Shown piece by piece: positions 50,808-63,381 of a stretch of 64,000 bases of DNA. Numbering within the stretch: the first letter of the stretch is position 1; each line of letters opens with the position of its first letter. Below the pieces are notes generated by a model that searched no databases, was not told where the DNA came from, and worked only from the letters and a program-made list of their open reading frames with translations. Made by a program: the position numbers and the translations under genes. The stretch comes from Aliidiomarina iranensis (GTDB lineage Bacteria > Pseudomonadota > Gammaproteobacteria > Enterobacterales > Alteromonadaceae), in assembly GCF_003987135.1 (NCBI RefSeq), contig NZ_PIPJ01000003.1, positions 1 to 64,000 of the forward strand. The letters run 5' to 3'.

Positions 50808-53525
50808 ATGGGTAAAGCACTAGTAATTGTCGAATCCCCCGCAAAGGCGAAAACGATTAATAAGTACCTCGGTTCCGATTTTATTGTGAAATCAAGCATC
50901 GGCCACGTTCGCGATCTGCCAACTAAGAGCGGAGCAAAAGCACCAACTAAATCACCCGCCGAAGTTCGGAAAATGTCTGAGAAACAGAAAGCTAAATACA
51001 AGCGTGAGCGTGATTACGTAAATCTTGTATCGCGGATGGGTATAGATCCGGAGCATGGTTGGGAGCCTCATTATGAGGTGCTACCCGGTAAAGAAAAGGT
51101 TGTAAAAGAATTACAGTCATTGGCAAAAAAAGCCGATACAGTTTATCTCGCAACGGATTTGGATAGGGAAGGGGAAGCGATTGCGTGGCATTTGCGTGAG
51201 CTTATCGGCGGCAATAATGACCGTTATCAGCGTGTGGTATTCAACGAAATCACCAAAAAAGCGATTCAACAAGCCTTCTCTGAACCCACAGAACTTAATG
51301 TATCTCGAGTAAATGCGCAGCAAACTCGTCGGTTCCTCGACCGTGTGGTTGGTTTTATGCTTTCGCCATTATTGTGGAAGAAAGTAGCACGCGGGCTCTC
51401 AGCGGGAAGAGTGCAATCGGTAGCCGTTCGATTAGTGGTTGAACGTGAACGTGAAATTAAAGCCTTTGTACCCGAAGAGTTTTGGGATTTACATGCTGAT
51501 TTGAGTGCACAAAAAGAAGAAGTGCGCTTCGCTGTGAGCCGTTATCAAGGCGAGAATTTCAAGCCTGTGAATAAAGAACAGGCAATGGCCGCGGTGCAAG
51601 CGCTTGAGCATGCTCGTTATGAAGTGGTTTCCCGTGAGGATAAACCAACTTCAAGCCGAGCATCAGCACCTTTTATTACTTCAACTTTGCAACAAGCCGC
51701 TAGCACCCGGTTGGGCTTCGGTGTTAAGAAAACCATGATGATGGCGCAGCGCCTTTATGAGGCAGGCTATATTACTTATATGCGAACAGATTCAACGCAT
51801 TTAGGGCAAGATGCATTAACCAGTGTGCGTGGGTTTATCGAAAAAGAATTTGGTAAGCCTTATTTGCCTGAAAAACCTAATTTCTATGGTGCTAAAGCGA
51901 ATGCACAAGAGGCTCATGAGGCGATCCGGCCTACCGATGTGAAAGTACGCTCAAAGGCACTGAGTGGTATGGAGCGTGACGCTGAGCGCTTGTATGAGCT
52001 AATTTGGCGGCAAACTGTAGCCTGTCAAATGACGCCAGCAAAATATGATGCAAGCACCATCACCGTAAAAGCTGGTGAATATGAGTTGAAAGCTCGCGGC
52101 CGAGTCATGCGCTTCGATGGTTGGACCCGAGTGCAACCGCCAATGAGCCGTAAAGGCGCCGAAGATACGCATTTGCCTGATTTAAAAGAGGGAGCAGAAC
52201 TAAAGTTGATTGCGCTTGATCCGCAACAACATTTTACCAAGCCACCGGCCCGATTCGGTGAAGCTTCATTGGTAAAAGAATTAGAGAAACGCGGCATAGG
52301 TCGGCCTTCAACCTACGCCTCTATTATTTCTACCATTCAGGATCGAGGGTACGTGCGTGTTGAAAACCGCCGTTTTTATGCCGAGAAAATGGGCGAAATT
52401 GTAACCGATCGGCTTACGGAAAATTTTCGTGATCTTATGAGCTACAATTTCACAGCTGAAATGGAACAGCGCCTAGATGACATCGCCGAAGGAAAGCAGG
52501 ATTGGAAAACGGCGCTCGATGAATTCTATCGCGATTTCAAAGATAAGCTTGAACTGGCTGAAGATCCGGAAGATGCAGGCGGAATGCGCAGCAATCAGAT
52601 GGTAGAAACTGATATTGAATGCCCAAAATGCGGGCGCAATATGGGTATTCGTACGGCATCAACGGGTGTGTTCTTGGGATGTTCAGGTTACAACTTGCCG
52701 GTTAAAGAACGTTGCACACAGACTTTGAATTTAGTGCCTGGTGATGAGGCTGTGAAAGTATCTGACGATGACGATGGTGAAGCAGAAGCTTTAGCTTTGC
52801 GTGCTAAGAAACGTTGTCAAAAGTGCGGTACTGCAATGGATTCTTATCTTCTTGATGAAGAAAGAAAATTACATGTTTGTGGTAATAATCCTGTGTGTGA
52901 TGGATATCTCATCGAAAAAGGAACCTTCAAAATCAAAGGCTATGATGGTCCTCTTATAGAGTGCGATCGATGTGGTAGTGATATGCAACTCAAGGCTGGG
53001 CGATTTGGCAAGTATTTTGGTTGCACCAACGATGAGTGTAAGAACACTCGAAAACTTCTGAAAAATGGTGAAGCCGCTCCACCGCGGGAAGACCCAGTAC
53101 ACTTACCAGAATTGCCTTGTGAGAAATCCGATGCGTACTTCGTACTGCGCGATGGTGCTTCAGGTATTTTTATGTCTGCAAGTACGTTCCCGAAATCGCG
53201 GGAAACTCGCGCTGTAACCGTGAAAGAATTGCAACGTTTTCGTGATCGCCTGCCTGCTAAATTCCATTATTTAGCGGATGCGCCGGCAGAGGATCAAGCA
53301 GGCCGTGATGCGGTTGTTCGTTATAGTCGGAAAAATAAAATTCAGTACGTGATGACTGAAGAAAATGGCAAAGCGACTGGATGGCAAGCACACTATGAGA
53401 GTGGTCGTTGGGTTGAGGAAGAAGGTAAAGCAACTGCCTCAGGAAAAAAGAAAACCACCAAGAAAGCGCCAACGAAAACAACAAAACGGGTTGTTAAAAA
53501 GCGTACAACTAGGAAAAGCTCTTAG
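50808..53525 (+). CDS. topA: DNA topoisomerase I
   Basis: A 905-residue type IA topoisomerase that relaxes negative supercoils. The TOPRIM domain begins [20 protein letters not shown]; the catalytic tyrosine is in ITYMRTDST (Tyr324). Three C-terminal four-cysteine zinc ribbons follow (CPKCGRNMG...; CQKCGTAMD...; CDRCGSDMQ...), then a Lys/Arg/Thr-rich DNA-binding tail ([18 protein letters not shown]). The ATG at 50808 gives the conserved start; a TTG three codons earlier overlaps the purine-rich AAGAGAC signal. It is followed by the pilus cluster. Confidence 0.98.
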
Positions 53526-53605: not shown

Positions 53606-54010
53606 ATGCATCTGAATCTTAGCAAGGTTTCGGCTTCATCTTGTTTCTTATTATTATTCGGCAACGTTGATGCATTGGCGTTTTCGTTGCCTGATTGTCC
53701 ACCGCTAAACCTTCAAGCCTTTAGTAAAAGTGCAAATTCGGTTTTTGAAAACAGCCAGTGGGCCGAGATTGAGCTCAAACCGGGTCTCTTACGGCCACAA
53801 CTGGAGCAATTGCTGAAAGAGCACTGGGGCATTCAGAATATCGTTTGGTATGCCGAGGATGGCCACTACTGGCCAACTCGCTACGCGATGCGTGCCGCCA
53901 CCTGGGATGAATTACTCAATACTCTAATCGCGCCCTACCATCTAAAAGTTACCCTGCATGCAAATCATACCGCGGTTGTTGATTACCTTTTTGATAAGAA
54001 GGGGGGCTAA
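53606..54010 (+). CDS. TcpQ/PilL-like periplasmic pilus assembly protein
   Basis: A 134-residue protein with a signal peptide (cleavage about residue 25) and one domain (about 50-125) resembling the TcpQ/PilL C-terminal fold: ELKPGLLRPQLEQLLKEHWG, VWYAEDGHYWPTRYAM and ATWDELLNTLIAPY. Such proteins stabilise the type IVb secretin in the periplasm. It has AAAAGGAG 7 bases upstream of the ATG and heads the cluster, 2 bases before the secretin gene. Assignment is by pattern and context. Confidence 0.7.
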   Translation: MHLNLSKVSASSCFLLLFGNVDALAFSLPDCPPLNLQAFSKSANSVFENSQWAEIELKPGLLRPQLEQLLKEHWGIQNIVWYAEDGHYWPTRYAMRAATWDELLNTLIAPYHLKVTLHANHTAVVDYLFDKKGG

Positions 54011-54012
54011 TC

Positions 54013-55512
54013 ATGCGCGCATTATTCTTGCTGCCTTTATTTCCTATGTTGTTTGCGTGTAGTGGTTTAGAAAGTTACGAATCTCGGCGGACTTTGGCAG
54101 AGGCCAGATTGCAGGCGGCTTATGAATTACCAAGCGAAAGCGCAACGGTGAGCCGAATTGTTCGCGAACAGGGCTATTTCGTGCCACCCCTGCAGTTACC
54201 CGAGCAAGATGGACCAGGTTGGTTTGATTTAAATTTGGAATTCTCCTTCGATAACTACCCGTTGAAACAAGCCCTACAGGATATCACGGCCCCTTTGGGA
54301 GTAAGTGTACGTTTGTTAGATAACATAGATCCGAATACACCCATTACGATGCGCCACAATGGCAACGTGGGTGCAGCCATTGAGCAAATAGGGTTATTAA
54401 CAGGCTTATCATTTGTAGCCGAGGAACGCTTAGTAACGTGGCGTCAATTCGAGATGGCTGAATTTGATGTCGCCTTCTTGGCAGGTGCTACCAACTTTTT
54501 TCTTGGTGCGGATGGGCAGGAGCAAGGGCAAGGTCAGAACTTTTCAAGTTCTTCACAAATGTCATTCAATAGTGGCTTGAGTGACGAATCATCCCAGTAT
54601 CTTAATTTTGCAAGTGAATCCCTATCCGTGTGGGACGATTTAGAGCGAGCTTTGAGCTTACTTCTCTCGGAACATGGTGAAATTGCAGTGAATCAAAGCT
54701 CAACATCGGTACTTGTAAGAGATTTACCACAACATGTGGCGCAAGTGAGAGAGTACTTAATCCAGCAGAATGAACGTTTAACTCGGCAAGTTGCCATTGA
54801 TGTACAAGTAATTGAAGTAACCTTTAATGATTCCAAACAAGTAGGTATCGATTGGGATTTGATTTATCAGAACACCCGTGGTTCTGGCGTAATTAACCTT
54901 TTATCAGGTAATAATAATCAACTCTCTGACGGCGTTTCAGGGATAGGCTATCAACGGCAAAGTGGGCCAATGGCTGGCGCGAACGCTTTAATCAGCGCAT
55001 TAAATCAGCAAGGTGTAGTAGAGGTTAGTAATCATCCGCGTTTGGTTACTTTAAATAATCAAATATCAAAAATCATCCTCGAAGATAACGTTACTTACTT
55101 AGCATCAGCAGGAACAAGTTCCACAGCAAATGTGGGTACTAGCGATCTTTTGATACCCGGAGTCGTTCGAACAGGTTTTGAACTCTATGTGTTGCCGAAA
55201 GTTGCGAATGAGCAAGTTCTCTTGCAGCTATCTACTTCGCTCTCAGATTTGCGCAGTATTGACGAAGTGCGTTCTGGGGAAATGATCATTCAAACGCCGC
55301 AAACGAGTAGAAAGAAATTCTTTATGAAAGCCATAGTGGCAAACCAAGAAACTTTGCTGATATCTGGTTTAGAAAATAGCCGGCAACAATGGCAAGAGGA
55401 TAAAACTTTCGGATCGTGGTTGTTAGGAGGTAAACGGCAAAACAGCCGGCAGCATTCGGAAACCTTGTTATTACTCACGCCGCGCATTTTAACTGCTGGA
55501 GCCATGTTATGA
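54013..55512 (+). CDS. pilN: Type IVb pilus secretin lipoprotein (PilN-like)
   Basis: A 499-residue outer-membrane secretin with a lipobox (LFACSG, Cys16), so targeted by lipid rather than only by a pilotin. N-domains (about 60-250) with FSFDNYPLKQALQDI and SSTSVLVRDLP precede the secretin domain (about 330-490), which has VSNHPRLVTLNNQ and the final ETLLLLTPRIL. The lipidated, PilN/BfpB-type architecture marks a type IVb system. A Gln/Ser-rich insert lies near 170-195. The end overlaps the next gene by 4 bases. Confidence 0.9.
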   Translation: MRALFLLPLFPMLFACSGLESYESRRTLAEARLQAAYELPSESATVSRIVREQGYFVPPLQLPEQDGPGWFDLNLEFSFDNYPLKQALQDITAPLGVSVRLLDNIDPNTPITMRHNGNVGAAIEQIGLLTGLSFVAEERLVTWRQFEMAEFDVAFLAGATNFFLGADGQEQGQGQNFSSSSQMSFNSGLSDESSQYLNFASESLSVWDDLERALSLLLSEHGEIAVNQSSTSVLVRDLPQHVAQVREYLIQQNERLTRQVAIDVQVIEVTFNDSKQVGIDWDLIYQNTRGSGVINLLSGNNNQLSDGVSGIGYQRQSGPMAGANALISALNQQGVVEVSNHPRLVTLNNQISKIILEDNVTYLASAGTSSTANVGTSDLLIPGVVRTGFELYVLPKVANEQVLLQLSTSLSDLRSIDEVRSGEMIIQTPQTSRKKFFMKAIVANQETLLISGLENSRQQWQEDKTFGSWLLGGKRQNSRQHSETLLLLTPRILTAGAML

Positions 55513-56663
55513 GCAATATTATTTACATGGCAAAGATTAGTAATCGTTTCCCGCCTTTAGCGCTTAGAAAGTTAGCAATCACGCACTCGGCAGAGTACGG
55601 CAGTGTTCTGAAGATTGGTGGCCAGAATTGGGTACAATTAACAGATAGCTCGGAGCCGAATTATATGTCTTGGGCGTTGGCATATTTTCGTTATTCATCC
55701 GTGCTCTTAATTTGCCAACTTGATAGCAGCTATCTCGTAATTGCTTGGGATCAGCAAGAAGCTGTGTGTAATCAGCGAGTGAACTATGAGGAGCTACCGA
55801 AACTTGTTGCTTGCATAAAAAATATTGAGGGCTACGACCCGAAAGTTTTTTATTTTATCTACGACCAAGCATTTCTCACTTCTTTAAAAAATGAATGGCC
55901 TGATGCTGAGCAGCTAACTGATTGGCCAGATTTACTAAAAACGATACCAGAATTAAAGCTCATTCGCTCACAATTTAAGCAGCCACTGAGTTGGGGCTTA
56001 GTGAGTGCGGTGTGTTTCGTTCTCGTTTTTTTGCTGTGGCCGAATGAGCCGCAATTAGAGCATGCGCCGATTGCCCCAGAAGCGCCGAGAGCTAATTTAA
56101 TTACTCTTCTCGCTGAAACTCCCGGAGCGGTAGCGCCACTACTTGAACTTGACGCTCAATTTCAGGCTTTACTTTTTCAGCTACCTGGCTGGCAAGTTGC
56201 TGCAATGGAGTATAAACAAGGCGTGTTGCGGTACCGTCTTTTAAGAACTACTGGGCATCTCAGTGAGCTACGCCGTTTTTCGGAGCGCTTTCATACTCAG
56301 TTATTGGTGCAAGGTAATGATGTTTGGTTACAAAGGAATGTCACTTTGCCACCGGCTCTTACCCAGCTATCGGAGAGCACGCAATTACAGCCACTGATTC
56401 ATCTTGAAGATCATTTGAACGATAGTATTCGCACGCTTTTACCCGGCGGAGAGCCTGAATTTCAAGTTCTTAACGTTAACGACACTTGGGGAATAAGGCG
56501 TGCGCAGGTCAGGTTTGAAGGGTATTTCCAAGAGGATCTCCTGACCTTATCAGGATTAATTGATGGCTTACCGATTCGTTTAATAGATGTAAATTATCGA
56601 GTTCGAGATCATCAGCTATATGGTTACCTATCCATTGATATTTATGGGGAGCATAACGGATGA
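55509..56663 (+). CDS. pilO: Type IVb pilus inner-membrane protein (PilO-like)
   Basis: A 384-residue bitopic protein: a cytoplasmic domain (1-155), one membrane helix (about 160-177) and a periplasmic domain. The size, topology and place between secretin and PilP match R64 PilO rather than the smaller PilO of type IVa pili. Sequence similarity to any described protein could not be judged, so the name rests on context. It overlaps the secretin gene by 4 bases and the next gene by 4. Confidence 0.65.
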   Translation: MSNIIYMAKISNRFPPLALRKLAITHSAEYGSVLKIGGQNWVQLTDSSEPNYMSWALAYFRYSSVLLICQLDSSYLVIAWDQQEAVCNQRVNYEELPKLVACIKNIEGYDPKVFYFIYDQAFLTSLKNEWPDAEQLTDWPDLLKTIPELKLIRSQFKQPLSWGLVSAVCFVLVFLLWPNEPQLEHAPIAPEAPRANLITLLAETPGAVAPLLELDAQFQALLFQLPGWQVAAMEYKQGVLRYRLLRTTGHLSELRRFSERFHTQLLVQGNDVWLQRNVTLPPALTQLSESTQLQPLIHLEDHLNDSIRTLLPGGEPEFQVLNVNDTWGIRRAQVRFEGYFQEDLLTLSGLIDGLPIRLIDVNYRVRDHQLYGYLSIDIYGEHNG

Positions 56664-57181
56664 AGTTTCGCGTATTTATGTCGCTTATTGCAGTTATCGC
56701 AATTACCAATTCAGGTTTTTCCTATGCAAAATCCTCTTCAGAAGAAAAGGTGGAGATAAAGCCAATTCTTAATGCTGAGGAGGTGAATCAGCACCAGCAG
56801 CTAGCACTTTCTTTACGGAATCAAAAGTTATTGGAGCAGCAAGCGGAATCTAGAGCTAAGCAACTTCTTTTTCAGTTGCAAGCAGCTGAAGCTTGGGCTG
56901 CAATTCAACGCTTAGGCGTAAAGGTAAATGCTGTAAGTAACACTGAGGTAGAGGGAACAACAGTTGCTGAAATATATAGCGCCGAGAGGGAGGAAGTTAG
57001 TGGCTATCGCATACTTGCCATGATCAAACAAGGCGATCAATGGATAGCTAAAATCGGGAATGACCATCAGGTATTCACAGTTCATGATGGCCGTGAATTT
57101 AAACCGGGTGTAGAGGCGCGTATTCAACGAAATCGCGTGCGCTTGATAGGAAAGGGTTGGCAGCATGAGATAGCTATGTAG
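56660..57181 (+). CDS. pilP: Type IVb pilus periplasmic protein (PilP-like)
   Basis: A 173-residue exported protein with a signal peptide (about 1-23), a coiled-coil-prone Gln/Glu/Ala-rich middle (about 40-82) and a small beta-rich domain at the C-terminus (about 105-170) with VFTVHDGREFKPGVEARI, resembling the PilP-type HR domain. It likely links the platform with the secretin. It overlaps pilO by 4 bases. Confidence 0.62.
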   Translation: MKFRVFMSLIAVIAITNSGFSYAKSSSEEKVEIKPILNAEEVNQHQQLALSLRNQKLLEQQAESRAKQLLFQLQAAEAWAAIQRLGVKVNAVSNTEVEGTTVAEIYSAEREEVSGYRILAMIKQGDQWIAKIGNDHQVFTVHDGREFKPGVEARIQRNRVRLIGKGWQHEIAM

Positions 57182-57219
57182 CGCATACGAAGTGCATACG
57201 TAGAAATTATGGGGTAGAT

Positions 57220-58773
57220 ATGGAAGTTATCAATGACACTCAGGCTTTAGGTTATGTCCACGTTTCCTCGCAACTACTGCAGCCTTGTTTGGATTTCTTC
57301 AATCAATGGAATGACCCAGAAGTTGTTGCGGTTGTATTAGAAGATGGGCGGTTGTTGGCATCGGAGAAAGCTTGGAGAACTCAATTCTTAGCGTTGCAGC
57401 AGTTGGTTTTTGTTGCTCGAAATGCTTGTCCTGTGAGTAAACTTTGCCAAGGGCCGGCGGCAACAATTCGGGAAATTCTAACTGATGCAGATGGGCAGCG
57501 CCGAGCGCTTGAGGTTCAAGCTGGATTGGCCCAATACGAGGAGAACTTAGCGAAACAAACGCTCAGCGATATTGTATCGGAGGCGCTGGCTATGGGTGCT
57601 ACTGATATTCACTTACGGATGAGTGGTCAAGATGCTCGAATCTCATTTCGAATCGATGGTTTGCTATGTTGGCAAGGCAACCGAAGCCGAATATTTGTCA
57701 CTGAAGTGGTTGCAGCCGCTTTAAATACTCAATCTGACGACTGTTCCGATGTATTTGATGAGCGAACAATATCTTCAGCAAGCATTTCCTTAACGTTACC
57801 AGAGCCTCATGGTGAAGTGCGAATTAGGGCGCAAAAATCCCCATGTCGTGATGGCTTTACGGTGACGCTAAGATTGCAAAAAAGTGGTCAGAAAGAGTTG
57901 CCAGATCTTTCGTCGCTTGGTTTTTCAACTAGCACTATTGTAGCGTTAGAGAAACTGATGCAGCACTCTATGGGCCTGATATTGATATCTGGTCCAACCG
58001 GACACGGTAAAACAACGACCCTCGCAGCAATGAATCGATTGTTGCCAGAAACTCGAAAAGTTATTTCACTTGAAGATCCGATTGAAATCGTACAACCGGC
58101 GATCGAGCAAAAGTTTGTACCAAATACACCGGAGAATAACGCATTTTCGGAAATGTTAAAGGTGGTTTTACGCGAAGACCCAGATGTCGTTGAAGTCAGT
58201 GAAGTTCGCGATTTAGCCACCGCAACATCAGCAATCAGTGCAGCACTTACCGGTCATTTAGTGGCATCAACTATTCACGCGAACGATGCTATCGGTATTC
58301 TACCCAGATTGCTTGATATTGGCTTAAGTGCAACGCAATTGAGCCAGCCAGGATTGTTAGCGGGGCTCATCGCACAGCGATTGTTACCGCATTTGTGCCC
58401 TCGCTGCCGTGTTTTGGAGAAAAACGGAAAACAGAATAACGGAAAAGTATATTGGACCCGTCACGAGGGTGGCTGTGCGCATTGTCATTACCGAGGTGTC
58501 ATGGGTCGTATTGTAGTGAGTGAAGTTCTAGTGCCTGGCTTAGATGCAGGCGGCTACATTCGCGATCAAGATTTTTACGGTTGGCGAAATCAACTTCAGA
58601 AACAGGGCTGGCGGAGTATGGCGAGCGAAGCGGAGCGCTTGGTTACTCAAGGGTTGGTATCGCTTCAGGATGCTCGTGAAATAGTACCTAATATGCATTT
58701 ACACATTTCCCAGGAAAACATTAGCAAGGATGATTCTCATGATGTCAGTTTTACCCATGCCGCGAATTCGTAG
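57220..58773 (+). CDS. pilQ: Type IVb pilus assembly ATPase (GspE/PilQ-like)
   Basis: A 517-residue secretion ATPase. Walker A is GPTGHGKT (258-265), the Asp box is LEDPIE (284-289), Walker B is DPDVVEVSEVRD (320-331), and the His box is STIHAND (350-356). A four-cysteine zinc site is at Cys393/Cys396 and Cys419/Cys422. The N-domain (1-110) is not GspE-N-like in length. It energises pilus extension from the cytoplasm. The Walker B tail EVSEVRD replaces the usual MxGExRD. It overlaps the next gene by 44 bases. Confidence 0.92.
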   Translation: MEVINDTQALGYVHVSSQLLQPCLDFFNQWNDPEVVAVVLEDGRLLASEKAWRTQFLALQQLVFVARNACPVSKLCQGPAATIREILTDADGQRRALEVQAGLAQYEENLAKQTLSDIVSEALAMGATDIHLRMSGQDARISFRIDGLLCWQGNRSRIFVTEVVAAALNTQSDDCSDVFDERTISSASISLTLPEPHGEVRIRAQKSPCRDGFTVTLRLQKSGQKELPDLSSLGFSTSTIVALEKLMQHSMGLILISGPTGHGKTTTLAAMNRLLPETRKVISLEDPIEIVQPAIEQKFVPNTPENNAFSEMLKVVLREDPDVVEVSEVRDLATATSAISAALTGHLVASTIHANDAIGILPRLLDIGLSATQLSQPGLLAGLIAQRLLPHLCPRCRVLEKNGKQNNGKVYWTRHEGGCAHCHYRGVMGRIVVSEVLVPGLDAGGYIRDQDFYGWRNQLQKQGWRSMASEAERLVTQGLVSLQDAREIVPNMHLHISQENISKDDSHDVSFTHAANS

Positions 58774-59794
58774 GCGTTTGAATCACAGAAGGCAGCTAGA
58801 GTTTCTCGTTGATTTTAGCCAGTGGTTAGCTGATGGACAAGCTCCCGATGCTGCTTTAGCAGGCATGGAGTTGCTTGCTAAAGAGAGAAAGGATCGCCAT
58901 CAGTATCAGGTTATTAAACAATTGCGTAGTGCTTTGGCTCAGGGAAAACCTGTAGCTGTTGGAATGCAGAATGATTTTTCGAAAGAGCTCCAAGTACTTG
59001 TTGATATTGGCCAAAGGGCTGGTTGCTTGCCTGAATTAATAGCGCGCCATCAAGTATTTAATGATCGTCGTAGACAACTCTTAAAGCGTGTCGGGCAGGG
59101 GCTAACTTATCCTTTAGTGTTACTTCTTGCGGCAATAATCGCTGTTGCTTTTATAGGAGCTGTGGTATTACCAAAATTTCAAAGTATTGATACCCTGAGC
59201 GGCCTTCCTTTATTCAGTGGTATGTTACAAACACTTGGCATAGCGATTGTGCAAGTGGGGCCACTGGTCATTCTAACCATCGTTTTAAGCATTCCGTTGA
59301 TGGTTATTGGGTTACCAAGGTATAGAAAACGGCTTCCCCATCATTTTCAAAATATATTTATTCTCACAGTTATTAATGCGTATCACGCTATTTATTTACT
59401 ACAAGGTTTGAGCCTGTTTTTAGCTTGCAACATAAGCCTCGAGCACTCGCTACGACTTTTCGAAGCGCGATGCTCGAGTTACTTGCGGGAACACGTTAAA
59501 GCAATGCGCAAATCTCTAGGACGGGGTGAAACGAGAATGCCTAAGGTGTTTGCTACTGGCCTCCTCAACCCAGCAGTGCTGTACCGCATGGAAGTGGGTG
59601 CAGCAACGCGTCAGTCAAAGCGTATTTTGTTTGCTCACTTGGCGGACCGAATTATGCTTGATACTGAACGTTTGGTAATCACTCGGCAACGAACAATGGC
59701 ATACCTTTGTTACTCAGTTGCAATCTTACTCATACTTTTAATCATATTCGGTTTAGGGCAGTTGTTCACCGAATTAGCACAGCAATGGGCATAG
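58730..59794 (+). CDS. pilR: Type IVb pilus platform protein (GspF/PilR-like)
   Basis: A 354-residue inner-membrane protein of the T2SF/GspF family: two cytoplasmic helical domains, (FLVDFSQWLADGQAPDAALAGM and FLACNISLEHSLRLFEA), each followed by membrane segments (about 127-150, 170-195, 330-350). It anchors the extension ATPase. The start at 58730 has AGCAAGGA upstream but an ATG at 58739 or 58742 within the overlap is also possible. It ends with no gap ahead of the pilin region. Confidence 0.88.
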   Translation: MILMMSVLPMPRIRRRLNHRRQLEFLVDFSQWLADGQAPDAALAGMELLAKERKDRHQYQVIKQLRSALAQGKPVAVGMQNDFSKELQVLVDIGQRAGCLPELIARHQVFNDRRRQLLKRVGQGLTYPLVLLLAAIIAVAFIGAVVLPKFQSIDTLSGLPLFSGMLQTLGIAIVQVGPLVILTIVLSIPLMVIGLPRYRKRLPHHFQNIFILTVINAYHAIYLLQGLSLFLACNISLEHSLRLFEARCSSYLREHVKAMRKSLGRGETRMPKVFATGLLNPAVLYRMEVGAATRQSKRILFAHLADRIMLDTERLVITRQRTMAYLCYSVAILLILLIIFGLGQLFTELAQQWA

Positions 59795-59848
59795 ATGTTG
59801 TTAAAAAATGCTCTTAATTATCTCAATAAACCAAGCAAGGAGCTCTAC

Positions 59849-60367
59849 ATGACAAATGGAATTGATAAATCAGATTTGCACATTGGCAAGATAAGTTCAG
59901 CCGCTAAACCTAATCTCGGAGAACACAATCGGCGAAATGCTGGCTTTACGTTTATCGAGGTTTTAGCAGTACTGGGTATTATTGCTCTCGCTACGGTGGG
60001 TGTCTTGAGTTTACGCGATTGGGCAACAAGCAACGCACGTATTGCCGAGGTGAAATCCCAAGTAGCCACAATACAATCGGGGGTTCAACAATGGCGTCCT
60101 CGTAATGGCGTCTACACTGGTATTTCTGTGAGTAGCCTTAGTAGCGTAGCTTCACTGCCCATAGATTGGGCTGATGGTACCGGCATTAATCCTTGGGGCG
60201 GCGATATAGAAGTAACGGTTGATTCAGCAGATGCAACACGTTACCAAGTACGATTTACCAATATTCGTGTGGAAGAGGAGGGTATGCGGCTGCAGCGAGA
60301 CTTCGCTGATATCGCGGAAGCGGTGAACTACGCTGCCGGCACCTTCGAAATAACTTTCCAAGGCTAA
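59849..60367 (+). CDS. pilS: Type IVb major prepilin (PilS-like)
   Basis: A 172-residue prepilin. The ATG at 59849 has AAGGAG 7 bases upstream; it yields a 32-residue leader ending NAG, then FTFIEVLAVLGIIALATVG with Glu5, the type IV pilin signature. Leaders of 20-30 or more are a type IVb mark. The mature part, 140 residues, has no cysteine and so cannot form the usual disulfide-bonded D-region. A prepilin peptidase cuts after Gly32; none is encoded here. A longer frame from 59795 lacks a ribosome site. It sits in the slot of PilS. Confidence 0.88.
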   Translation: MTNGIDKSDLHIGKISSAAKPNLGEHNRRNAGFTFIEVLAVLGIIALATVGVLSLRDWATSNARIAEVKSQVATIQSGVQQWRPRNGVYTGISVSSLSSVASLPIDWADGTGINPWGGDIEVTVDSADATRYQVRFTNIRVEEEGMRLQRDFADIAEAVNYAAGTFEITFQG

Positions 60368-60370
60368 TTT

Positions 60371-60583
60371 ATGTCGGGCTTTTCCTTATTCGAGCTCACC
60401 CTAGTGCTGGGCATTTCAGCCGGGATTTTTGCTTGGCAAGCGCAATCTTGGCAAGTTTTTGAATTGAAAAAGCCGTTGCAACATTCAGTTCAAAATATCT
60501 GCACCAGCTCACAGGGTGTAACTCACCGACATCAAGAAGAAAACTATTGGTTTTCTGAAAAAGGAGAGCTTTTCTGTGTCTAG
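60371..60583 (+). CDS. Short minor prepilin-like protein
   Basis: A 70-residue protein beginning MSGFSLFELTLVLGISAG, with a three-residue leader ending in Gly and Glu5, a class of very short leader as in type II pseudopilins, and one hydrophobic helix. Two cysteines (in NICTSS and LFCV) could pair. It is too short for a full pilin; a minor initiation or tip pilin is plausible. It overlaps the next gene by 8 bases and has no similar named family. Confidence 0.6.
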   Translation: MSGFSLFELTLVLGISAGIFAWQAQSWQVFELKKPLQHSVQNICTSSQGVTHRHQEENYWFSEKGELFCV

Positions 60584-61859
60584 TAAGGTGTTGTCGAAGG
60601 ACGTTCTGGCGAAAACTGTAACGGTAAACAAGATTGCGGCAAATGACCCAAGCACTAACGAGGTTATGGTGGATGGCCGGGCGACAAACCAAGCGGCGGC
60701 CGGAAAGCAATCAGCAAGAAAGAGTAACCAGTTTGGTTACTCTTTGCTGGAACTTCTTATTGTTTTAGCTTTTTTAGGGACATTACTTACTTTTGCGATC
60801 CAGTTTTCCACAACACAACAACGGCAAGCAAGAATACAGTTATTTGTTGCCGAATTAAATGACTTAAAGAATGCTGTATACGCGGCTCGGGAAGTTACTG
60901 CCGAAGAATTATCGGTAACTAATCTCATTGCCGGGAAACATTACTTTGGTGCGGAAGTGAGCCCATGGGGTGAACCTTATGCCATTGTAGAGAATGAAGA
61001 GGGGGTATTTGTAAGCGGTTATGCTGAAAATCAACAATTGGCCGAGCTTGCAGTTAACAAATTAGCAGCTGCAGATTTCGAGGCAAGTTGGGTGAAAGTC
61101 TTTGTCTACCGGCCTAATCCACAATTCGATGAAGAACAATTTTTGCATCGGGATTTTGATGAGCAAAGGCCATATCTTAATCAAATGAATACAAATTTAG
61201 ATATGAATGCTAATGACATCGCTAATGTTGGTGAGTTAGCTGCAGAACAAGCTAATTTCCTGAACAGCAACGCTAACTTAGCTTGGTTTGATAACTTAGT
61301 TGCCGAAGATGCAACATTCGACGAATTGTCGGCAAATTTTTTAAGTAGTGAAAACGCACTAATCAACGAGTTGGATAGTAATGTTCTTGAGGTAAATGAG
61401 TTACTTGTTAGTGATTTATTCGCGGAAAATTTGCAGATCAGTGCCCCTAGCGTTACGGTGCAACTACTACAAGTTAATGATTTACAGGGTAGTAATTTAT
61501 TTACTGAGCAACTGTCGGTAGTGAATCAACTCTCTGTAAATGGAACCTTATATGCCAATAATGGTGAGGTTGATTATATCAACATAGATCAGTTGTTTGC
61601 AGAAAATGCCACCATTCAGAGTATTGAATCACAATCATTGAATGCGAGTACTATTACTGCCGATTCGGTTACCGCTAACCAATTCAGTGCTAACCAAATG
61701 CAGGTGTTGGGAAGCTTGCAAGTAACAGAGTTGAGCGCTGGAAACATTTTCGCCTTTGATTTTATTACGCCATCAAGCTCTTTGAATGCAGTTATTCAAC
61801 AGGCGGCGGCTCTTGATTCGTTATGGCGAGATTGCATTAACAGCGGAGGTTGCCAGTGA
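60576..61859 (+). CDS. pilV: PilV-like tip protein with repetitive stalk
   Basis: A 427-residue prepilin-like protein. The GTG start has AAGGAG 9 bases upstream and gives a very long leader of 54 residues ending QFG, then YSLLELLIVLAFLGTLLTFAIQ with Glu5. The middle has NTNLDMNANDIANVGEL, like PilV adhesins, and then about 170 residues of Asn/Leu/Ala/Ser-rich repeats (about 200-395) suggesting an elongated beta stalk. The end DSLWRDCINSGGCQ has two cysteines. There is no shufflon: one fixed C-terminus and no recombinase nearby. It is likely the pilus-tip adhesin. Confidence 0.72.
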   Translation: MSSKVLSKDVLAKTVTVNKIAANDPSTNEVMVDGRATNQAAAGKQSARKSNQFGYSLLELLIVLAFLGTLLTFAIQFSTTQQRQARIQLFVAELNDLKNAVYAAREVTAEELSVTNLIAGKHYFGAEVSPWGEPYAIVENEEGVFVSGYAENQQLAELAVNKLAAADFEASWVKVFVYRPNPQFDEEQFLHRDFDEQRPYLNQMNTNLDMNANDIANVGELAAEQANFLNSNANLAWFDNLVAEDATFDELSANFLSSENALINELDSNVLEVNELLVSDLFAENLQISAPSVTVQLLQVNDLQGSNLFTEQLSVVNQLSVNGTLYANNGEVDYINIDQLFAENATIQSIESQSLNASTITADSVTANQFSANQMQVLGSLQVTELSAGNIFAFDFITPSSSLNAVIQQAAALDSLWRDCINSGGCQ

Positions 61860-62440
61860 ATGCTCATCGTTTTCTGGTAAAACCAATGCTTGGGCAAAGT
61901 ACAGTGGAAGGCACGATTACCTTAGGTTTGTTTTTCCTATTCTTGGCAGCATTAGTTCAGCTAATCTGGTTGCTATTGGTGCAACAAATGTTGCAGGCAA
62001 CTACATTAAGTGCCACCCGCGTGGGCGCTCGTTCTAATATGGATAAAGCGGCTATGCAGTTGCTGGTACAGAGCCGCATGCAATCGATACCTGGTATGGA
62101 GCTACATTTACCTAAGATAACTCGATTAGCGCCAAGCGACGGCGATATAAAGCAATATGGCCGTTTTAACAAAAGTACTCAAGAATACCGGTTGCCCACG
62201 GAGTTCCCGGCAGTGAGCCTTTCACTATTAGGGCGGGAGGAACAAGAGAGATATTTAAAGCTGCGAGTACTTCAGGTTGAAATAATTTACTGCTTTCCGT
62301 TGCAAGTACCGTTAGCCGGCGCATTCATCAATGCTATCGTGGAAACCGACGCTTATTGCCAAACGCAACCGCGGCGCCACCCAGTAATGAGTATTCAAAC
62401 CCGAGCAACGGTCCCTCTTGAAAATGATCTTAAGATTTAA
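61856..62440 (+). CDS. TadE-like pseudopilin/membrane protein
   Basis: A 194-residue protein with one N-terminal helix preceded by GQSTVEGTITLGLFF, a TadE-like signature (polar segment, Glu, then 20 hydrophobic residues), and a mostly extracytoplasmic remainder. The GTG at 61856 is chosen because GGAGG is about 7 bases upstream; a TTG at 61850 is also in frame. TadE-like pseudopilins belong to Flp/Tad pili; its use with a PilN/PilO/PilQ-type system is unusual. It overlaps the preceding gene by 4 bases and closes the cluster. Confidence 0.68.
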   Translation: MNAHRFLVKPMLGQSTVEGTITLGLFFLFLAALVQLIWLLLVQQMLQATTLSATRVGARSNMDKAAMQLLVQSRMQSIPGMELHLPKITRLAPSDGDIKQYGRFNKSTQEYRLPTEFPAVSLSLLGREEQERYLKLRVLQVEIIYCFPLQVPLAGAFINAIVETDAYCQTQPRRHPVMSIQTRATVPLENDLKI

Positions 62441-62508: not shown

Positions 62509-63381
62509 TTAATTGTCTTGCTGAAAATCATTACATGCTTGCAATGTATTGGCCATTAGCATTGCTACCGTCATTGGGCCAACACCACCGGGAACCGGAG
62601 TAATAAAACTAGCACGCTGTTGCGCAACATCGAACTCAACATCGCCACATAGTGTTCCATCGCTGCGGCGATTAATTCCAACGTCGATTACGATAGCACC
62701 GGGCTTTATCCAATCGCCAGGAATAAAGCCTGGCTTACCAACCGCAACAACAAGAACATCCGCCTGTTTTACATGTTTTGAAAGATCTTGAGTAAAGCGA
62801 TGGCACACAGTTGTTGTAGCACCTGCTAACAAGAACTCTAGGCTCATTGGTCGGCCAACAATATTCGACGCGCCAACGATAACTGCATGCTTACCGTGCA
62901 AATCAGTGCCCGTGCTCTCTAGTAATTTAATAACACCGTAAGGCGTGCAGGGGCGAAGTACAGGTAAACGCTGGGAAAGGCGGCCAATGTTGTATGGATG
63001 AAAGCCATCTACGTCTTTTTTTGGGTTAATGCGCTCCAAAATCCGCGTTGAATCTAATCCTGCAGGAAGAGGTAGTTGTACTAAAATTCCGTCTATTTCT
63101 TTATCTTCATTCAAGGTATCAATGAGTTGTTCTAAGGTTTCTTGGCTCGTTGTTACGGGTAAATCGAAGGCTTTCGATATGAAACCTACTTCATCGCAAG
63201 ATTTGCGCTTGCTCCCAACATACACTTGTGAAGCTGGATCTTGGCCGACTAAAACAACAGCTAATCCCGGCGCGCGTTTGCCCCCGGCCAGGCGCTCAGC
63301 AACGCCGTGTTTTACGTTATTGCGAATTGTTTGAGCTATGGCTTTACCATCAATTAGTTGTGCGATGTTTTGGGAGGTCAT
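62509..63381 (-). CDS. folD: Methylenetetrahydrofolate dehydrogenase/cyclohydrolase
   Basis: A 290-residue bifunctional enzyme of one-carbon metabolism (5,10-methylene- to 10-formyl-tetrahydrofolate, NADP). Visible are the catalytic Lys in YVGSKRKSC, the dinucleotide loop [16 protein letters not shown] and the C-terminal [15 protein letters not shown]. Normal length. It is convergent with the pilus cluster and divergent from the tRNA array. Confidence 0.98.

What the first reader, a model, noticed from the sequence alone, without database searches (positions are those of the whole stretch)
53606..62440. Compact, possibly distinct type IVb pilus cluster between topA and folD
Ten tightly packed genes combine R64/TCP-type core parts (TcpQ-like, lipoprotein secretin, PilO, PilP, PilQ, PilR, long-leader pilin, PilV-like tip) with a TadE-like protein more typical of Tad pili and a 70-residue minor prepilin. 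No peptidase, no retraction ATPase, no PilM/PilT/PilU and no recombinase are present. This chromosomal hybrid layout is the best candidate here for an incompletely described system.
Basis: partly seen in the sequence, partly recalled or inferred. Interest (0 to 1): 0.72.

Follow-up and report, generated by a model that had tools for sequence, protein, structure and literature searches.

The report
Two pilus operons with swapped tails
A marine bacterium carries a set of genes for one kind of surface hair, but the last gene of the set appears to belong to a different kind of hair built elsewhere in the genome, while a part of the first kind probably sits at the end of that other set, so gene neighbourhood here does not tell which machine a part serves.

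Summary
The ten genes are real. Nine (53606-61859) form a chromosomal type IVb-like pilus cluster, conserved between topA and folD across Idiomarinaceae (window genus: Aliidiomarina). The 'hybrid' feature, the TadE-like gene g10 (61850-62440), is best read as a Tad part. Genomes of three other genera carry its homologue inside the Tad cluster, right after tadD. Two clades lost the type IVb motor independently, and g10 stays at this site in all 15 of those genomes: alone in 10, with the TcpQ-like and secretin genes in 5. The window genome's Tad cluster, 120-130 kb away, ends in tadD's downstream slot with a PilV-like prepilin gene (V2). That slot holds a prepilin-like ORF in 36 of 39 examined genomes that keep the type IVb cluster (31 by sequence-search hit) and in 0 of 14 that lost it. 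So each operon seems to end with a gene of the other machine: well supported for g10, likely but unproven for V2, since an N-terminal tree does not join V2 to the second PilV of other type IVb clusters. One genome kept g10 after losing Tad. Unexplained: five Aliidiomarina species keep an intact, selected secretin and TcpQ-like pair without a motor. TcpQ, PilO and PilP labels lack profile support.

The parts
50811..53525 (+). topA, upstream flank of the cluster
   Evidence: conserved flank
53606..54010 (+). g1, 134 aa, 'TcpQ-like' secreted protein; label by position only
   Evidence: no TcpQ match in 17 members; kept with g2 in the 5 pilus-less Aliidiomarina
54013..55512 (+). g2, type IVb lipoprotein secretin, 499 aa, Cys16 invariant in 17 members
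   Evidence: TIGR02520 1.7e-63; alignment; BfpB 4.6e-39; strong match in 17 of 17 genus genomes
55509..56663 (+). g3, PilO-position protein, 384 aa, fast evolving
   Evidence: position; no Pfam support
56660..57181 (+). g4, PilP-position protein, 173 aa
   Evidence: position; no Pfam support
57220..58773 (+). g5, assembly ATPase, 517 aa
   Evidence: PF00437 1.6e-77; orthologue not found in 5 Aliidiomarina and 10 Idiomarina-type genomes
58730..59794 (+). g6, inner-membrane platform, 354 aa
   Evidence: PF00482 3.8e-10
59795..60367 (+). g7, major prepilin; start codon uncertain
   Evidence: N_methyl 7.5e-6, Bundlin 1e-5; alignment
60371..60583 (+). g8, 70-aa prepilin-like ORF
   Evidence: BLAST match in 4 of 11 full relatives
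60576..61859 (+). g9, PilV-like minor prepilin with repeat stalk ending at a C-x5-C motif (GGC in most relatives), Glu5 present; start uncertain
   Evidence: Shufflon_N 2.1e-5; Glu5 in 11 of 11 g9 proteins checked
61850..62440 (+). g10, TadE-like minor prepilin, assigned to the Tad pilus encoded at G000:C23 near 181-192 kb
62509..63381 (-). folD, downstream convergent flank
   Evidence: conserved flank

Best explanation
g1-g9 encode a type IVb-like pilus: a lipoprotein secretin with a small partner, a linker pair, one assembly ATPase, one platform protein, a major pilin and PilV-like minor pilins, matured by the genome's single prepilin peptidase. g10 is a minor pilin (TadE/F) of the separate Tad pilus, where by analogy with the Myxococcus Kil pilus it would help build the tip complex. 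In an ancestor of Idiomarinaceae g10 left the 3' end of the Tad operon for the 3' end of the type IVb operon, and a PilV-like gene (V2; no Glu5; Cys-rich C-terminal domain in Aliidiomarina; proposed as the outermost type IVb tip protein) came to fill the slot after tadD. Shown by computation: positions, retention and loss patterns, homology of g9 and V2. Inferred: protein functions, that V2 serves the type IVb pilus, that one peptidase cuts both sets, the direction of the moves, and that the exchange was one event.
For: g10 homologue directly after tadD in the Tad clusters of 3 genomes of other genera; the two of these tested score over the TadE cut-off, 30.4 and 49.7 against 22.9. In the genus every PF07811 match lies at g10 (9 of 16 genomes have one). 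Of 395 family genomes, 65 match the g10 profile, by my count 62 Idiomarinaceae and the 3 others; 63 have cpaF at 1e-70, G265 has it split, G328 lacks it. g10 is kept at the topA-folD site in all 15 genomes that lost g3-g9 or g1-g9 (in G011 the contig ends inside g10). These are two separate clades in a quick topA tree (SH-aLRT 98-100). No ATPase orthologue was found in 5 of 5 and 10 of 10, with 3 of 3 controls positive. V2 slot after tadD: prepilin-like ORF in 36 of 39 genomes with the type IVb cluster (10 of 12 Aliidiomarina, 18 of 18 Pseudidiomarina, 8 of 9 Idiomarina-type; 31 by sequence hit, 5 by likeness or joint profile), none in 14 of 14 without it. V2 and g9 are homologous (hhalign 99.6%, 1.7e-24). 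17 Pseudidiomarina tail proteins together match V2 (99.2%) better than g9 (98.2%). Three other Alteromonadaceae clusters carry tandem PilV genes; the second lacks Glu5 in 3 of 3 (by eye) and in 2 of 3 scores best with the V2 profile, including its Cys-rich part.
Against: A tree of PilV N-terminal domains puts the first and second copies of the other Alteromonadaceae together (99), on the g9 side, not with V2. The second copy of L129, cut by the locus end, scores better with g9 (81.5) than V2 (38.8). So the V2 half is not shown by orthology. V2 is missing in 2 of 12 type IVb-bearing Aliidiomarina (G001, G006). G328 has no cpaF or cpaC yet keeps g10 with dN/dS 0.037 against its relative. The three genera with tadD-g10 were not placed on a tree, so the direction of the move is inferred. 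The loss pattern rests on two independent events. Both operons mostly lie on the same strand where they share a contig, so a single inversion does not explain the exchange. No structure was obtained.
Confidence: 0.7

Rival explanations
1. True hybrid: g10 is a working minor pilin of the type IVb pilus encoded beside it.
For: g10 overlaps g9 by a few bases in the window; 47 genomes hold both the type IVb secretin and g10, the five three-gene genomes aside.
Against: g10 survives without the type IVb motor in 15 of 15 genomes; the six secretin-bearing genomes outside Idiomarinaceae are not among the 65 with a g10 match; homologues sit in Tad clusters elsewhere.
Confidence: 0.1
2. V2 is a Tad tip protein that took the place of g10 in the Tad operon, and its loss together with the type IVb cluster is coincidence or due to shared ecology.
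For: V2 is the last gene of the Tad operon and its ORF overlaps tadD in the window genome; the N-terminal tree separates V2 from all PilV proteins encoded in type IVb clusters.
Against: Tad is kept but the slot holds no prepilin-like ORF in 14 of 14 examined genomes without the type IVb cluster; V2 is PilV-like and shares its C-terminal module with the second PilV of two other type IVb clusters.
Confidence: 0.2
3. In the five pilus-less Aliidiomarina the secretin and TcpQ-like pair was taken over by another machine (Tad, MSHA or T2SS) or works alone as an export channel, together with g10 as a three-gene unit.
For: g1-g2-g10 are contiguous in 5 of 5; low dN/dS in the one unsaturated pair (secretin 0.09, g1 0.15, by division); 4 of these 5 lost about 55 residues of the periplasmic part of the Tad secretin CpaC. 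Two loci of another genus (L130, L131) also hold g1- and g2-like genes with a giant stalk-like ORF and no g5, g6 or g7 match in the fetched stretch.
Against: CpaC keeps its secretin region in all five; the 10 pilus-less Idiomarina-type genomes have no such secretin at 1e-60; g1 evolves faster relative to topA in this clade, 7.3 against 4.2.
Confidence: 0.3
4. The g1-g2 pair is a decaying remnant of a deletion.
For: Rates of g1 and g2 relative to topA are higher in this clade.
Against: Five genomes in a well supported clade, intact g1 and g2 ORFs, dN/dS well below 1 in the one measurable pair; relative to folD the secretin rate is about equal in both groups (2.41 against 2.39, my division; folD from 5 of 9 pairs in the reduced clade).
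Confidence: 0.15

Closest known systems
Type IVb pili (R64 thin pilus, BFP, TCP, CFA/III)
   Same: Lipoprotein secretin nearest to BfpB and TIGR02520; one ATPase and one platform; pilin head matching Bundlin; PilV-like stalked minor pilin; peptidase encoded elsewhere
   Different: Core locus between topA and folD; mature pilin begins with Phe; no detectable TcpQ, PilO or PilP similarity; a second PilV-like gene probably parked in the Tad operon; no recombinase matched among the ten ORFs
Tad/Flp pili with TadE-TadF-TadG-type tip complex (Kil pilus of Myxococcus, PMC12075869, passages seen)
   Same: g10 is a TadE-family minor pilin; the genome has flp, tadG, tadE, cpaB, cpaC, cpaF, tadB, tadC, tadD-like genes in one cluster (several of these names by reading the sequence, Pfam supports cpaB, cpaC and TPR of tadD)
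   Different: Its TadE sits 120-130 kb away at the end of another pilus operon; the only peptidase match in the genome is elsewhere; no TadZ was noticed among the ORFs (by eye)
T4bP and Tad models of the type IV filament survey (PMC6668835, passages seen)
   Same: That survey allows loner genes in T4bP and, rarely, multi-locus Tad systems
   Different: None of the 12 passages shown reports exchange of operon-end genes between Tad and T4bP; TadE has 0 occurrences in its main text

Membership tests
Type IVb pilus | T4b-type lipoprotein secretin | tested here: met
   TIGR02520 is the best NCBIfam match, 1.7e-63, though 215 bits is under the 287.65 cut-off; BfpB is the best solved match; Cys16 invariant
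Type IVb pilus | ATPase and single platform protein in the locus | tested here: met
   PF00437, PF00482
Type IVb pilus | T4b pilin head | tested here: inconclusive
   Bundlin 26.3 bits over cut-off 22.3, PilS 18.2 under 22.0
Type IVb pilus | Long leader and non-Phe first residue of mature pilin (recalled criterion) | tested here: not met
   18 of 19 aligned pilins read G then F at the site, one G then L; leader long in the window, short in most relatives
Type IVb pilus | TcpQ, PilO, PilP-type parts | tested here: inconclusive
   Positions fit; no matching Pfam model
R64 PilV/shufflon | Shufflon_N constant region plus recombinase | tested here: inconclusive
   Shufflon_N 24.6 bits under cut-off 27.5, over part of the profile; no recombinase family among the Pfam matches of the ten ORFs
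Tad minor pilin TadE (g10) | PF07811 match | tested here: inconclusive
   Borderline for the window's copy: 22.0 bits and 23.1 in the genome search around the 22.9 cut-off; g10 over the cut-off in 8 of 16 genus genomes; two homologues in Tad clusters 30.4 and 49.7
Tad minor pilin TadE (g10) | Occurs with a Tad machine | tested here: met
   64 of 65 carriers have cpaF, one of them split; G328 is the exception
Tad minor pilin TadE (g10) | Incorporated in the Tad tip | not testable with these tools
   needs biochemistry or imaging

The most novel reading that the evidence does not exclude
The two pili are cross-wired: each operon supplies the last part of the other machine, so each pilus can be fully tipped only when the other operon is transcribed; and in one Aliidiomarina clade the abandoned type IVb outer-membrane channel lives on with the Tad TadE as a reassigned module.
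Probability: 0.25. Interest if true: 0.75.

Novelty: new variant of a known kind. Interest (0 to 1): 0.5.

Why it matters
Pilus parts are often assigned to machines by operon membership. Here two natural losses argue that this assignment is wrong for one gene and probably for another. It gives a clean system to ask whether operon-end exchange couples two pili, and the five species with a lone type IVb secretin pose the question of what such a channel does without its motor.

Tried and rejected
A hybrid type IVb/Tad machine was rejected. Gain rather than loss of the motor genes was rejected: the reduced clades are nested in a topA tree with outgroup. Assembly gaps as the cause of the missing genes were rejected: topA and folD flank the reduced loci on one contig in 14 of 15; in G011 the contig ends inside g10. 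A missing Tad secretin as the reason for keeping g2 was rejected: CpaC is present in all five. V2 as a simple orthologue of the second PilV of other clusters was not supported by the N-terminal tree. A single inversion as the exchange mechanism does not fit the mostly shared orientation (positions, compared by eye). Promoter and terminator scans gave no excess over shuffles. PDB sequence searches with the g10 and g1 profiles found nothing.
Full report
What is there. One search gives ten same-strand ORFs from 53606 to 62440 between topA and folD, with overlaps or very short gaps. Profiles support a secretin, an ATPase, a platform, a pilin, a PilV-like protein and, borderline, a TadE-like protein. 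The secretin's nearest solved relative is BfpB, 4.6e-39. TcpQ, PilO and PilP are positional labels: no matching model in 17, 22 and 18 members. The mature pilin begins with Phe in 18 of 19 aligned relatives, and long leaders are not constant.

Where it occurs. Named relatives place the window in Aliidiomarina. The secretin is strong in 17 of 17 genus genomes and found in 58 of 395 family genomes at 1e-60: by my count 17 in the genus, 26 in group g50, 9 in group g52, and 6 in other genera. Of 39 loci, topA is seen in 38 and folD in 38, the two exceptions being cut by contig ends; 35 are full-type clusters (with g3, g4 or g8 unrecognised in some) and 4 hold only g1, g2 and g10. Several of these loci are the same genomes as.

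First natural experiment. In 5 of 16 genus relatives g3-g9 are gone and g1-g2-g10 remain. These five form one clade in trees of topA+folD and of the secretin. No orthologue of the ATPase was found in any of the five (17 genomes), nor of the major pilin (16 genomes, 11 with a match).

Second natural experiment. A g10 profile over the family (65 of 395) hit ten g52 genomes without a secretin match. All ten have topA-g10-folD and no other recognisable gene of the cluster between, and none has the ATPase orthologue, while 3 of 3 controls do. A quick topA tree of 66 rows with outgroup makes each reduced set one clade, so there were two independent losses, and g10 survived both.

Where g10 belongs. 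In three genomes of other genera (G235, G193, G412) the g10 homologue follows tadD inside the Tad cluster; the two I tested pass the TadE cut-off. These genera were not placed on a tree. Of the six loci outside Idiomarinaceae with the secretin, none shows g10, though some end within or just after the PilV genes; their genomes are also not among the 65 with a g10 match. Four of the six are full-type clusters (L129, L132, L133, L134); two (L130, L131) show g1-, g2- and g3-like genes and a giant ORF but no ATPase, platform or pilin match. Ten further Tad clusters hold ORFs with weak matches to the g10 profile (12-30 bits), upstream of cpaF in nine and after tadD in one. In the genus every PF07811 hit is g10 (9 of 16 genomes). 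All 17 genus genomes carry a Tad cluster upstream of smpB (queE on the other side not detected in two). One result goes the other way: G328 has neither cpaF nor cpaC but keeps g10 under constraint.

The other tail. In the slot after tadD a PilV-like gene (V2) occurs in 10 of 12 Aliidiomarina with the type IVb cluster and in 0 of 5 without. In Pseudidiomarina an ORF of this kind fills it in 18 of 18 loci (17 by profile hit, some weak; L171 by likeness to L158); in a 19th, G265, a 256-aa ORF lies there that I did not test. In Idiomarina-type genomes with the cluster, 8 of 9 have one (4 by profile hit) and the ninth (L181) is unclear; in those without, 0 of 9. G328 has no Tad slot. A joint profile of 7 short Idiomarina-type ORFs reaches 76% and 82% against V2 and g9, and under 1% against g7 and g10. 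V2 is homologous to g9 and lacks Glu5 in 10 of 10, whereas g9 has it in 11 of 11. In Aliidiomarina V2 carries a Cys-rich C-terminal domain that g9 lacks. Type IVb clusters of G385 and G413 have two such PilV genes in tandem; the second scores 154 and 172 bits with the V2 profile against 42 and 57 with g9. Against this, the second copy of L129 (cut short) favours g9, 81.5 to 38.8, and an N-terminal tree groups the two copies of these genera together, so independent duplication or homogenisation is possible.

Mechanism. Best reading: two pili, one peptidase (one PF01478 match in each of 17 genomes), and an exchange of operon-end genes in an Idiomarinaceae ancestor. Proteins homologous to TadE, TadF and TadG are predicted to form the tip complex of the Kil Tad pilus, with genetic support (PMC12075869, passages seen), so g10 should serve the Tad tip. 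TcpB, a minor pilin with extra C-terminal domains, sits at the tip of TCP (PMC9565799, passages seen), so g9 and V2 are read as the type IVb tip. That a prepilin without Glu5 would be the outermost subunit is recalled from type II secretion (GspK), not tested.

Left over. In the five reduced Aliidiomarina the secretin and g1 are intact. For G009/G010, dN/dS by division is about 0.09 for the secretin, 0.15 for g1 and 0.08 for g10. Their rates relative to topA are higher than in other species for g1 and the secretin, yet the secretin rate relative to folD is about equal. Four of these five also lost about 55 residues of the periplasmic region of CpaC. What the lone secretin does is open.

Literature. 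Searches (listings seen) showed no description of this cluster or of the exchange; 12 passages each of PMC6668835, PMC12075869 and PMC9565799 were seen. Subscription journals are largely missing from that library.

Noticed in passing
L043, L046, L058, L059 (Tad secretin CpaC): Four of the five Aliidiomarina without the type IVb motor lack a stretch of about 55 residues in the periplasmic part of CpaC that the other 13 genus genomes, including the fifth, keep.
   Followed up: partly
L148 (G328, topA-g10-folD): A single-contig Idiomarina-type genome with no cpaF or cpaC match keeps g10 intact, dN/dS 0.037 against its relative G299.
   Followed up: partly
L130 (G083) and L131 (G120): In one further genus the g1- and g2-like genes stand with a g3-like gene and a giant ORF (2004 and 1669 aa) but no ATPase, platform or pilin match in the 12 and 19 kb fetched: another motorless secretin locus.
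   Followed up: no
L130:2825-8839, L134:2847-6191: The long stalk-like proteins there (2004 and 1114 aa) begin with ordinary-looking signal peptides instead of prepilin leaders (by eye).
   Followed up: no
L175, L177 downstream of tadD: The tail slot of the Tad operon holds a 93-aa ORF that looks Xre-like followed by a 421-aa ORF that looks HipA-like (by eye) in two Idiomarina-type genomes.
   Followed up: no
L047:9691-10833: The ATPase ORF next to the pilC- and pilD-like genes is only 380 aa; the matching open frames beside the peptidase are 331-411 aa in 16 genus genomes and 493 in G008, short for a PilB.
   Followed up: no
L035 and L036 (G001, G006); L135-L142: Short stalkless g9 proteins (about 134-146 aa) occur in two Aliidiomarina, which also lack V2, and in most Idiomarina-type loci of this range, where the V2-slot ORF is also short.
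   Followed up: partly
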